This document shows, piece after piece, positions 31,505-55,658 of a stretch of DNA of 64,000 nt. The translations under genes were made by a program, and so were the position numbers. Under the pieces are notes generated by a model, which was given only the letters and a program-made list of their open reading frames with translations, was not told the DNA's origin and did no database searches. Source of the stretch: Caulobacter sp. (GTDB taxonomy: Bacteria; Pseudomonadota; Alphaproteobacteria; Caulobacterales; Caulobacteraceae); contig WGLL01000009.1 in assembly GCA_016125585.1 (NCBI GenBank), positions 1 through 64,000 on the forward strand, given 5' to 3'. Positions within the stretch are counted from its first letter, which is position 1. Each line of letters starts with the position of its first letter.

Positions 31505-31537
31505 GACGGCCCCTGAGCATCGGGTTCAGGGGCCGTC
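31505..31537. terminator. Terminator hairpin between convergent catalase and ROK genes
   Basis: Perfect 12-bp stem GACGGCCCCTGA...TCAGGGGCCGTC; TTTT follows on the minus strand. Confidence 0.6.
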
Positions 31538-32154
31538 TCCCGGAACGTCCCACAACCACGCCGCGCCCCGCACACCCGAGGAGTCGCCGTGCTTCGCCGG
31601 CCGCACCGCGGTGGCGAAGGTGTCGCTGAACACATGGCGGCCCATCACCTCGGGAAGCCGGTCGTACAGTTCATCGATATTGCTCATCCCGCCGCCCAGC
31701 ACGATGACCTCCGGATCGAGCAGGTCGCAGACCGTCGCCAGGCCCCGGCCCAGCCGGTCGATGTAGCGGTCGAGCGCCGCGACCGCCGCCGTCTCTCCGG
31801 CGCGGGCCGCCGCGACGATGGCCGCGCCATCCAGCGCGCGTCCAGAGGCGGTCTCGTAATCCTCCATGAAGGCTGTCCCTGACACCCAGGTCTCCAGACA
31901 GTCGGTCCGGCCGCACCAGCAGGCGTGGGGCCGGGCGCGCTCCTCGGCCGTGCGCCAGGGCAGGGGCGTGTGGCCCCATTCGCCGGAGTAGCCGCCAGCC
32001 CCGGCCCAGTCCGCGCCATTCACATGCAACCCGCCGCCGCAACCGGTGCCGATGATCACCCCGAAGGCCGTGCGCGCTCCCGCCGCTGCGCCATCGGCCG
32101 CCTCTGAGATGATCAGGCAGTCGGCGTCGTTGCGCAGTCTCAGGTGCCGTCCCA
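31526..32154 (-). pseudogene. C-terminal part of an interrupted ROK-family sugar kinase
   Basis: ERVMGRHLRLRNDADCL...FGVIIGTGCGGGLHVNG...CWCGRTDCLETWVSG...EVIVLGGGMSNIDELY; N-terminal half lies at 38375..38663 beyond the element. Confidence 0.9.
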
Positions 32155-32223
32155 TCACCCGCTCCAAATCTTTGGATTCCAATAAATACCTGAAATATCA
32201 GGGCAAAAATCACCGATTTTTGT

Positions 32224-33382: not shown

Positions 33383-34210
33383 TCAGGGATCGTAACCCGA
33401 ATGGGCGGAAACCGCCGCGTGGGTTCCGTCGCGCCAGCGATAAAGCCCGGTCCGAAGGGGACGCCCGAGTAATCTTGGTATCGAAGCCTCCGCTTCTCCT
33501 TCTGGTGTTGCCGCATAGGCACGGCCAACGGTGAGCGCATGGCGCATGAGGTTGGCGGCCATGTCGGGCCAGAAGGTATCGCCCTGTGCCCCGCCGACCT
33601 GTGCGAGAACCGAACGCAGGACGGCAGCGACGTGGCTGGGTGCGAGGCTAGCGGTGATGTTCACGCCAAGGTCGCCCGTGCCTGTGCCGATGCGCAGCAC
33701 GTCGCCCGAACGCCCTGCGGCGGCGGCGATCTTCTCGGCGTCGTGCCACAGCACGCCCTTGGCGTCGGTGATATATGCACCGCACTCCGGCTCTGCGAAT
33801 ACCTGCCGCAGCAGTGGTTTCAGAATGGCCGTGGTCTTGCCGTCGCCGGTGCCGCCGAACACCAGCAGGTGCTGGAACAGGGACTCACCATCAAGAGCGA
33901 GGGCTTGCCCCTTGCTTGGAGCTGCCATGTCACCGCGCACGCGCAAGGTGCCCGTGCCCTTGCCGATGTGAAACAACGGCGCTTCTGCCAGATAGTCGGT
34001 GGCATGGGCCACCTGTCGCACATAGCCAGCGCGGGCGATCTCTCGCGCTTCGGCACGAAACGGCCAGCGCACATGCGCATCCTTGGACAGCACTTCATAG
34101 GGTGCTGATGCTTCGCGCCGCCAATGCTCAATGGCGGCGATGGCGACAAGGATGGCCGCATCATGGCCGATCTGCGCAGCATGGGTCAGTCGGTCTTTCT
34201 CAACCCGCAT
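33383..34210 (-). pseudogene. Truncated conjugative coupling ATPase (VirD4/TraG-like) fragment
   Basis: 275 aa with LLVFGGTGDGKTTAILKPLLRQVF Walker A and YITDAKGVLWHDA; ends ~145 aa later, before a Walker B region normally present. Confidence 0.65.
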
Positions 34211-36750: not shown

Positions 36751-36952
36751 CCTGCCCTGAAAATTGCCAGCGGCAACGGGCAGGTAGAAGGCGGCATGGG
36801 GGCCGCGTCGAACTCGACGCAGCTTGATTCCCCAAACCGCCAGCCGGTTCACAATCGAGAAGCGCCAGCGGCGCATTGTGAATCCGGCAGAACGCAAGGC
36901 TTGAAGCATCGGCAACCGGACCCGGTTGCTGGCTCGATGCCCGCCTAGCGTT
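36751..36952. other. Array of four consecutive hairpins (apparent duplicated two-hairpin module)
   Basis: H1 36751-36784, H2 36790-36841, H3 36844-36887, H4 36891-36952; loops AGC, AC, AGC, AC; see findings. Confidence 0.7.
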
Positions 36953-38240
36953 TGGGTCGCGACGGCTTATCCGTCTGCTTGGCCTTGATGGACTCCACGG
37001 CTTTCGCCTTGGCTTCGAGCTTGTCGATTTCCTCGTTCATTTCATTATGCATGGCGTCCCATCCGCCAATGCCCATCAACACGCGGTCGGCGTGCTTGAT
37101 GGTGTTCACATGCCCATAGTGCTGTTCGATCATTTTGACTGACGTGCCCATCTGCTGGGCGAGAATATAAACATCGACACCTGCGGACAGTCGCAGGGTG
37201 GCGTAGGTATGACGGAAACAATATGTCGTGCGTGGAATCCCGCTCGGTCCATCGCGAAGGTCGGTATATTTTAGCAGTTCTTCGACAGTATCACGGTAGA
37301 GCCATTTGGCGGGTTTGCCGTTGATGATCGTGAATACGTGATCGTCCTGCTTGGTCGCCTTGGACAGCTCCCGCACGCGATCAAGATATTTTCCGACGCT
37401 GATCGGAGCGATGAGTTTGCGGGTTTTACCTTTGCCCTGAACATAGAGGACAAGGATTTCCTGTCCGTCCTTGTCCTTGGCAGTTGTGATGTCCCGCCAG
37501 CGTAGGTTCTTTGCCTCGGGCGGGCGCATCCCTGTGTTGCACATGATGAGGATGAAGTTGTAGCAGATTTGGCGATACCAGACGCCCTGCGGCGTGGTCG
37601 CCTCTTTCATCCATTTGCGCCCCTTCGTGTGCAGCTTGCGGTATTCCTCAAGCGTGAACTCGTCGCGGCGGTTGGATTTCAGCTTTGGCATGCCTTCAAA
37701 GCGGTGGTGCGCGGGCACATACCGCTTGCTGATAGCGAAATTCATAATGGCAGCGAAAATGGTCATCTCGATGCGGATGGTGGAATCGCTGATGACGCCT
37801 TTGCGACGGCCTTCGCCGTTTTCCCGTCGCCACAGCGGATAGTCGGCCCAGCGCTCCTGCGTCACCAGATGAATCTGTGTGCTGCCGACATAAGCCTTAA
37901 GCGGGCCGTCGATCTTGCTTCTGATATTTCTTGAGCGGGCTTTGCTGACCTCGCCTGCGTTAGCGCGGCGCTGCTGGGCGTCGGCATATTCCTCTGCCAC
38001 CTGCAAAAAGGGGCGATTGAATACCGGAACGTCGTGCTTCACCCGAAAACGAATATCGGCATACTCGTCTAGCGCTCGGTCACGCGCCGCCTGCTTGTCA
38101 GCCGTGCGGAGCGAGATTGTCTTGTAGCGGTCCTCGTTCTGGATTCTGACACGGCAATAGTAGTTGTCGTGCCCGACATCGCCGCGCCGGAAGATAATGA
38201 GGCCGGGCTTGACCTGCTCTTTATCGACGATGAAACTCAT
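36945..38240 (-). CDS. int: Tyrosine-type site-specific recombinase/integrase
   Basis: 431 aa; NTGMRPPEAKNLRW (box I Arg), TTYCFRHTYATLRLSAGVDVYILAQQMGTSVKMIEQHYGH (HxxR...Y). Confidence 0.93.
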   Translation of the reverse strand: MSFIVDKEQVKPGLIIFRRGDVGHDNYYCRVRIQNEDRYKTISLRTADKQAARDRALDEYADIRFRVKHDVPVFNRPFLQVAEEYADAQQRRANAGEVSKARSRNIRSKIDGPLKAYVGSTQIHLVTQERWADYPLWRRENGEGRRKGVISDSTIRIEMTIFAAIMNFAISKRYVPAHHRFEGMPKLKSNRRDEFTLEEYRKLHTKGRKWMKEATTPQGVWYRQICYNFILIMCNTGMRPPEAKNLRWRDITTAKDKDGQEILVLYVQGKGKTRKLIAPISVGKYLDRVRELSKATKQDDHVFTIINGKPAKWLYRDTVEELLKYTDLRDGPSGIPRTTYCFRHTYATLRLSAGVDVYILAQQMGTSVKMIEQHYGHVNTIKHADRVLMGIGGWDAMHNEMNEEIDKLEAKAKAVESIKAKQTDKPSRPKR

Positions 38241-38323: not shown

Positions 38324-38374
38324 GCTATTATAACAAAAAATAGTGAATAATTGTAGTGGTTTATTGGAATACCT

Positions 38375-38663
38375 TCACCCGCTCCATGTCGACCGGCAGC
38401 GGACGATCATTGAGCCAGAAGCTGTTGGCGTTGCGCGACAGGCCGGTGCGCGGCGAGATCGAGCCCGGAATGCCGACCCCGACCCGGTCGACCCTGACCC
38501 CGGCCTGGCGTTCGGCCTCCTCGACGACCTGACGCGCCACTTCCAGCGAGTCCTCGTAGACCCGCGGATTGGGCAGGCGCACCCGGGCGACGAATCGCCC
38601 TTCGCCGTCGAGCGCGGCCGCCTCGATCTTGGTGCCCCCGAAGTCCACGCCGATCCGGATCAT
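38375..38663 (-). pseudogene. N-terminal part of the interrupted ROK-family sugar kinase
   Basis: [34 protein letters not shown]...GVGIPGSISPRTGLSRNANSFWLNDRPLPVDMERV, then runs into element sequence (KVFQ stop). Confidence 0.9.
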
Positions 38664-54181: not shown

Positions 54182-55658
54182 GCGCCTCGGCCCCCTGGCG
54201 CGTCACCCGCAGCAGTTCCTCGACGGTCGTTGTTCCCTCGGCCACCAGCGCGCGGGCCGCCACGGTCATGTCGCCGCCCTGGTCGCGACCGATCGCGGCG
54301 ATGGCCTGTTCGTCGGCGCCGTTGGCGATCATGCCGCGCACCGCGTCATCGATCCGGATGGCCTCATAGACCCCGACCCGGCCGACATAGCCGGTCTGGT
54401 TGCAGGCGGGGCACCCCCGGGCGCGCCACACCGTCTGCCCCTCGGCCAGTCCCGCCAGCCGGGCGGCGGCGGCGTCGGCGGCGACCGGCTCGCGACATTG
54501 CGGACAGAGCCGGCGGACCAGCCGCTGGGCCAGCACCATCCGCAGGGTCGAGGCCAGCAGGAAGGGCTCGACCCCCATGTCCCGCAAGCGCGTCACCGCG
54601 CCGGCGGCGTCGTTGGTGTGGACCGTGGACAGCACCAGATGGCCGGTCAGGCTGGCCTGGACCGCGATCTGGGCGGTCTCGCTGTCGCGGATCTCGCCGA
54701 CCATCACCACGTCGGGGTCCTGGCGCAGAATGGCCCGCAGGCCGGCGGCGAAGGTCATGCCGACCCGGGTGTTGACCTGGGTCTGGCCGACGCCGTGGAT
54801 GGCGTATTCGACCGGGTCCTCGATGGTCAGGATGTTGCGGGTCTGGTCGTTGAGCAGGCCAAGCCCGCCATAGAGGGTGGTGGTCTTGCCCGAGCCGGTC
54901 GGGCCGGTGACCAGGATGATGCCGTGCGGCTCGCGCACCGCCGCCTCGAACTGGCGCAGCAGGGCCGGGGCCATGCCCAGCTCCTCCAGCCGAAGCCCGG
55001 CCTGGTCCTTGTCGAGGATCCGCAGCACCACCCGCTCGCCGACCCGCGCCGGCAGGGTCGAGACCCGCACGTCCAGCGCCTTGCCGCCCAGGGTCAGGGA
55101 GATGCGGCCGTCCTGCGGCAGCCGCTTCTCGGCGATGTCCAGCCGGGCCATGACCTTGATCCGCGAGACCAGCAGCGGCGCGATCCGCTGCGGCAGGCTC
55201 AGCATCTCGCGCAGCACCCCGTCGATGCGGAACCGCACGGTGACCGACTGCTCATAGGGCTCGACATGGATGTCGGAGGCGCCCAGCCTGGCGGCCTCGG
55301 CGATCAGGCCGTTGATCAGCCGGATCACCGGCGCCTCGTCCTGCGGGTCCAGCAGGTCGGCGGTGGCCGGCAGGTCGTCCAGCAGTCCGTCCAGGCCGCC
55401 CGCCATCTCGACGCTGTCGGCGCTCGAGGCGGCCAGGCCCTCGCCGGCATAGACTTCCGAAAACCGCCGCTCGAAGGCAGGGATCGCCAGGGTCTCGATG
55501 GCCAGCGGCCGGCCCAGCACCCGCCGCGCCTCGACCAGGGCGGCCGGATCAGCCCCCTCGCGCAGGGCCACCCGGGCGGTGTCGCCAAGCTCGAGCAGCA
55601 GGACGCCCGCGCGCTTGGCGAAGCCGTAGTTCAGGGCGGGTTCGGCCAGGGTGGTCAT
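54168..55658 (-). CDS. gspE: Type II secretion ATPase E
   Basis: GPTGSGKTTTLYGGL, EDPVEYAIHGVGQTQVN, tetracysteine CPQC...CPAC. Confidence 0.95.
   Translation of the reverse strand: MTTLAEPALNYGFAKRAGVLLLELGDTARVALREGADPAALVEARRVLGRPLAIETLAIPAFERRFSEVYAGEGLAASSADSVEMAGGLDGLLDDLPATADLLDPQDEAPVIRLINGLIAEAARLGASDIHVEPYEQSVTVRFRIDGVLREMLSLPQRIAPLLVSRIKVMARLDIAEKRLPQDGRISLTLGGKALDVRVSTLPARVGERVVLRILDKDQAGLRLEELGMAPALLRQFEAAVREPHGIILVTGPTGSGKTTTLYGGLGLLNDQTRNILTIEDPVEYAIHGVGQTQVNTRVGMTFAAGLRAILRQDPDVVMVGEIRDSETAQIAVQASLTGHLVLSTVHTNDAAGAVTRLRDMGVEPFLLASTLRMVLAQRLVRRLCPQCREPVAADAAAARLAGLAEGQTVWRARGCPACNQTGYVGRVGVYEAIRIDDAVRGMIANGADEQAIAAIGRDQGGDMTVAARALVAEGTTTVEELLRVTRQGAEAHGGV

What the first reader, a model, noticed from the sequence alone, without database searches (positions are those of the whole stretch)
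36751..36952. Four back-to-back hairpins between chrA and int, arranged as a duplicated and diverged two-hairpin module
Contiguous inverted repeats. H1: CCTGCCC-TGAAAA-TTGCC-AGC-GGCAA-C-GGGCAGG. H2: GGCGG-cat-GGGG..GCGTCGA-AC-TCGACGC..CCCC-aaa-CCGCC. H3: CCGGTTCACAAT-CGAGAA-GCGCC-AGC-GGCGC-ATTGTGAA-t-CCGG. H4: AACGC-aa-GGC..GCATCG-GCAACCGG-AC-CCGGTTGC..CGATGC-cc-GCC-ta-GCGTT. H1 and H3 share the layout outer stem, 6-nt one-sided bulge (YGARAA), 5-bp inner stem, AGC loop. H2 and H4 share multi-segment stems closed by an AC loop. Stem sequences differ while pairing is kept (TTGCC/GGCAA versus GCGCC/GGCGC), a covariation-like signal. This is far more structure than a terminator needs. Options: a structured ncRNA, a ssDNA-folding recombination or transfer site, or remnants of a hairpin-ended small element.
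Basis: seen in the sequence. Interest (0 to 1): 0.7.

Follow-up and report, generated by a model that had tools for sequence, protein, structure and literature searches.

The report
Hairpin array trailing an integrase gene
Right behind the integrase gene of a mobile DNA island sits a run of four hairpins that related islands keep in shape while changing the letters, which points to an undescribed structured RNA (or folded single DNA strand) that probably controls or insulates the integrase gene.

Summary
The four hairpins are real (z = -7.5 on the integrase strand). They are a conserved feature of a family of tRNA-Gly-targeting islands whose full-size members carry a relaxase. All 29 of 29 loci with a complete integrase 3' end carry the array directly behind int; in the window the first stem encloses the stop codon. 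Covariation is strong: score 0.240 against 0.108 shuffled (0/500), 16 pairs changed on both sides. The build is modular: hairpins with a 5' bulge alternate with hairpins that have a 5-6-nt 3' bulge and a GCT triloop (47 GCT against 14 for all other 63 triloops together). Some islands add hairpins. chrA is only local cargo. The att sites lie elsewhere; attC boxes, arm-type sites and the att core are absent from the array. Rfam has no match. Function is not shown. Most likely: a structured 3' UTR of int mRNA that sets the fate of the message or insulates int from cargo, in the manner of lambda sib. Rivals: two-way transcription barrier, folded ssDNA site, mutational palindrome correction. Strand evidence favours the int strand but is not decisive.

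The parts
   Evidence: folds in 22 of 22 aligned homologues; covarying inner stem
   Evidence: covarying outer stem in A1
36945..38240 (-). int, 431-aa tyrosine recombinase; stop codon 36945-36947
   Evidence: PF00589; 31 loci at 83-99% identity
38375..38386 (-). att core TGGAGCGGGTGA at the int end of the island
32155..32166 (-). att core TGGAGCGGGTGA at the far end of the island
   Evidence: same far-end sequence next to tRNA-Gly in four relatives

Best explanation
The array is a structured element in the 3' untranslated region of the integrase mRNA of a family of islands that target tRNA-Gly. Shown: it follows int on the same strand in every copy with a complete int 3' end, alpha folds across the int stop codon, the hairpins keep their shape while stem letters change, and hairpin units are added or lost as modules. 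Inferred: when int is transcribed the RNA folds into alternating bulged hairpins that fix the fate of the int message (processing or protection of its 3' end, with folding of alpha depending on whether a ribosome sits on the stop codon) and keep int and cargo transcription apart. The islands thereby hold the recombinase at a set level. In outline this works like lambda int/sib retroregulation. The invariant GCT triloop and fixed bulge distance suggest a protein that reads the hairpins; which one is unknown.
For: 29 of 29 loci with a complete int 3' end carry it directly behind int. Covariation: 93.6% of cells paired vs 86.0 shuffled, 87 vs 25.3 double-changed cells, score 0.240 vs 0.108, 0 of 500 shuffles. 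Same three hairpins in 22 of 22 single folds. GCT 3'-bulge geometry 47 vs 14 for all other triloops. G.T on int strand 28 cells at 7 column pairs vs A.C 10 cells at 3. Only two arrays lack an intact int beside them, one with an int remnant (L056), one orphan with a decayed delta (L061). Precedents: lambda sib (PMC5300877 passage), int 5'-UTR stem-loops of ICEKp1 (PMC13023037 abstract and passages).
Against: No transcript data. No terminator-like hit in the window's array. The opposite strand folds with lower energy in 10 of 22 rows. G.T wobble would also suit ssDNA. One covariation measure (further pair types) does not exceed shuffles (29 vs 31.4). L031 and L062 lack alpha, so its overlap with the stop codon is not essential. 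No RNase III or protein evidence.
Confidence: 0.45

Rival explanations
1. A two-way transcription barrier: each hairpin is a GC-rich inner stem followed by an unpaired tail, beta/delta facing int transcripts and alpha/gamma facing transcripts from the cargo side, so that the mirror-image layout stops RNA polymerase from both sides.
For: Mirrored bulges. In most rows the gamma bulge is A-rich on the int strand, i.e. T-rich behind the inner stem on the opposite strand (seen in the alignment). In the window chrA converges on int; first downstream genes occur in both directions (heuristic ORF calls).
Against: No terminator-like hit in the window array; beta/delta tails are often not T-rich; a terminator does not need an invariant GCT apex or fixed bulge distance.
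Confidence: 0.22
2. A folded single-stranded DNA site on the int strand used when the island is transferred or replicated, such as a priming or protein-loading site.
For: int and array are among the few things shared between islands; full-size relatives have relaxase and coupling-protein domains; G.T pairs are tolerated in ssDNA.
Against: Relaxase lies about 8-11 kb away in L097, L099, L100; place fixed to the int stop codon rather than to transfer genes.
Confidence: 0.17
3. No function: quasi-palindromes kept perfect by template switching, which makes changes look compensatory.
For: Array letters change much faster than int (54-59% vs 81-91% identity in the extreme pairs); extra units come and go.
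Against: Template switching would erase one-sided bulges, yet the 5-6-nt bulge persists with changing letters and the GCT loop is invariant; the orphan L061 without int has lost the delta apex.
Confidence: 0.1
4. A folded recombination site at which the integrase captures cargo, integron-like.
For: The integrase is a tyrosine recombinase; cargo differs soon behind the array among nearly identical int copies.
Against: No attC box, arm-type site or att core in 22 of 22 rows; GCT hairpins cluster at the int 3' end and not between cargo genes; att sites lie elsewhere.
Confidence: 0.04

Closest known systems
lambda sib / int retroregulation (PMC5300877 passage; RNase III step recalled)
   Same: structure 3' of a tyrosine integrase gene, on the int transcript, proposed to set int mRNA level
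   Different: several modular bulged hairpins with GCT apex; stays with int after integration because att is on the other side of int; no RNase III evidence
STAXI motif (PMC2864571 section 26)
   Same: tandem structured units near integrase and antirestriction genes; RNA or ssDNA left open by its authors
   Different: STAXI is a repeated pseudoknot with UUCG tetraloops; here bulged hairpins with GCT triloops, and no Rfam match
ICEKp1 int 5'-UTR stem-loops (PMC13023037, abstract and passages)
   Same: mRNA stem-loops that limit integrase expression in an island at a tRNA gene
   Different: 5' UTR and terminator-like there; 3' of the stop codon here
integron attC sites (recalled; listing only)
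   Same: imperfect hairpins with extrahelical bases beside a tyrosine recombinase gene
   Different: no attC boxes, no cassettes, recombination sites elsewhere

Membership tests
any Rfam 15 family | covariance match at or above gathering score | tested here: not met
   window: 0 matches; low-threshold hits far below gathering
lambda sib-type retroregulator | lies 3' of int on the int transcript strand | tested here: met
   29 of 29 loci; transcription itself not shown
lambda sib-type retroregulator | RNase III-dependent decay of int mRNA | not testable with these tools
   needs experiment
lambda sib-type retroregulator | separated from int by integration (att lies between, recalled) | tested here: not met
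   att core is upstream of int, array on the inner side
STAXI | Rfam/STAXI model match | tested here: not met
   no match at gathering or E<=10
integron attC | RYYYAAC/GTTRRRY boxes | tested here: not met
   0 of 22 rows
intrinsic terminator | hairpin followed by T-run | tested here: not met
   no hit in 36751-36952; other relatives not scanned with this tool
oriT | lies beside the relaxase gene | tested here: not met
   about 8-11 kb away in L097, L099, L100; window island has no relaxase hit
REP/MITE-like repeat | many copies per genome | tested here: not met
   one strong R1 match in each of 9 of 9 genomes

The most novel reading that the evidence does not exclude
A modular RNA built from mirror-image bulged hairpins with an invariant GCT apex is an obligatory partner of a tyrosine integrase: it is read by a dedicated protein, possibly the integrase itself, so that recombinase activity is controlled by its own 3' RNA, with the number of hairpin modules tuning the response.
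Probability: 0.15. Interest if true: 0.8.

Novelty: new variant of a known kind. Interest (0 to 1): 0.55.

Why it matters
Control of island excision is well understood only in a few model elements. A conserved, covarying, modular structure tied to one integrase clade across Sphingomonadales and some other Alphaproteobacteria makes 3'-structure control of a recombinase directly testable, with natural variants (extra hairpins, alpha missing) and an orphan copy as built-in comparisons. It also adds a candidate family that Rfam 15 lacks.

Tried and rejected
DNA searches with the window array gave nothing useful: own genome only itself plus chance-level hits, 1 of 385 class genomes (itself), one 43-base chance-level plasmid hit, no phages. 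L013 array: no plasmid; L022 array: no phage. Int: none in viral contigs, none in plasmids. Rfam: no match (low-threshold hits are far below gathering). Coding in an overlapping frame: rejected. Cassette array: rejected, since GCT hairpins cluster at the int 3' end. The weak R1 match L063 (24.5 bits) folds into an unrelated long structure and looks like coding DNA; set aside as chance. L061 was examined as possible independent mobility of the array: no array follows the EF-hand gene in the 10 related loci I read, out of 23 other genomes with that gene; with a truncated alpha and no int in the genome I read it as debris of a lost island. Paper searches did not show this array; they cover open-licence PMC only.

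Full report
Observation. The four hairpins are at 36751-36952 as described. The region folds at -118.1 kcal/mol on the minus strand (z -7.5) and -106 on the plus strand (z -4.6); none of 200 dinucleotide shuffles folds as well on either strand. I name them in the direction of int (minus strand): alpha = H4, beta = H3, gamma = H2, delta = H1.

Setting. int is a 431-aa tyrosine recombinase (PF00589) on the minus strand; its stop codon (36945-36947) lies inside alpha. The island has the core TGGAGCGGGTGA at both ends, 38375-38386 and 32155-32166. It splits an ORF that I read as a ROK-type kinase (the name is my reading, not tested). In relatives the core is the 3' end of tRNA-Gly: 10 of the 28 loci scanned carry a tRNA-Gly at the core, and four of these also show the island's far-end sequence next to it (L085, L087, L088, L096). 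The window copy therefore seems to sit at a secondary site. Full-size relatives carry a MobA/VirD2-type relaxase (L097, L099, L100), coupling-protein domains (L097, L099, L100) and ArdC (L099), and a near relative of the window's ArdA region (L097). The window island carries ArdA, HepT-like and ChrA; int with array and the far end are shared most widely, cargo differs.

Conservation. A protein search with int in one-per-species genomes gave 31 loci. Their int 3' flanks show the array with altered letters. A covariance model, R1, was built from alpha-beta-gamma of 22 of the 26 arrays then in hand (L015 and L026 left out as near-duplicates, L030 and L031 as divergent). Run on 40 sources, it matches all 29 of 29 with a complete int 3' end, at E <= 3.9e-15. 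Six loci with a truncated int (L033, L034, L036-L039) and three loci with integrases of 30-32% identity (L042, L043, L067) do not match; L056 (only the last 28 codons of int left) and L061 (no int) do. In 9 genomes there is one strong match each. In 396 genomes of the order of L013's host there are 12 matches: 9 beside int (71-99% identity), L056, L061, and L063, which I set aside as chance; several of the 12 are genomes already met. In 198 genomes of another family only the known one matched. None was found in plasmids or phages.

Covariation. On A2 (22 rows, 50 pairs) 93.6% of cells pair against 86.0 in shuffles, 16 pairs and 87 cells change on both sides against 11.3 and 25.3, and the score is 0.240 against 0.108; 0 of 500 shuffles reach any of these, and slid structures score at most 0.069. 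One measure, further pair types, does not exceed its shuffles (29 against 31.4, 460/500). Each row folds alone to the same three hairpins (22 of 22). The rows are close relatives, so changes are partly inherited, and the structure was taken from the same rows.

Architecture. In 31 array regions the 3'-bulge geometry occurs 47 times with a GCT loop and 14 times with all other 63 triloops together. 31 distinct GCT hairpins share outer stem, 4-7-bp inner stem, GCT and a 5-6-nt 3' bulge, while stem letters vary. Alpha and gamma have the mirrored bulge. L028 folds with a third pair, and L029 and L032 carry the same sixth hairpin; L011, L027, L035 and L023 have an extra delta-like hairpin; L031 and L062 lack alpha. 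Array identity falls to 54-59% in pairs whose int stays at 81-91%, so letters change fast while the shape stays.

Strand. G.T on the int strand occurs in 28 cells at 7 column pairs, A.C in 10 cells at 3 column pairs. z is lower on the int strand in 16 of 22 rows, but raw energy is lower on the other strand in 10 of 22. The int strand is favoured, not proven, and ssDNA of that strand would show the same signal.

Not coding and not an att site. The phase of the invariant CCGCTGG relative to the int stop takes all three values, and no frame is open in all rows. The att core, arm-type sites (TRCACAG, my reading of the repeats beside int) and attC boxes (consensus recalled) are absent in 22 of 22 rows. 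No terminator-like hit lies in the window's array.

Orphan. L061 lies between an EF-hand gene (my reading) and a convergent gene, in a genome without this int. In the 10 related loci that I read no array follows the EF-hand gene. Its alpha is truncated and its delta has lost the GCT apex, as expected of debris of a lost island.

Mechanism. I commit, at 0.45, to a structured 3' UTR of int mRNA that fixes the fate of the message and separates int from cargo. Position, covariation and modularity are shown; transcription, processing and protein binding are inferred. Precedents are lambda sib (passage in PMC5300877) and the int 5'-UTR stem-loops of ICEKp1 (abstract and passages of PMC13023037). The nearest described motif in concept is STAXI (section 26 of PMC2864571), which differs in fold. 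Rivals: two-way transcription barrier (0.22), folded ssDNA site (0.17), palindrome correction (0.10), folded recombination site (0.04).

Novelty. No Rfam family matches, and nine answered paper searches in open-licence PMC did not show it. I file it as a new variant of a known kind: a 3' structure beside an integrase gene, with an undescribed modular build.

Noticed in passing
31526-32182 and 38361-38663 (-): The two halves of what reads as a ROK-type kinase ORF flank the island; the insertion is at a 12-bp match to the tRNA-Gly 3' end, so probably a secondary integration site.
   Followed up: partly
33383-34210 (-): Fragment resembling a TraG-type coupling protein (no Pfam hit) that aligns at 94% DNA identity with L100; the window island looks like a reduced mobilizable element.
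   Followed up: partly
L056 and upstream in G740: Array with only the last 28 codons of int left and a different integrase (30% identity) about 1.6 kb upstream.
   Followed up: no
54815-54913 (+): ARAGORN reports a tRNA-like gene with a four-base anticodon, tRNA-???.
   Followed up: no
L012 against window: int 91% identical in DNA but array only 55%: L012 has the array type of the L013 group, so array and int may be exchanged separately.
   Followed up: partly
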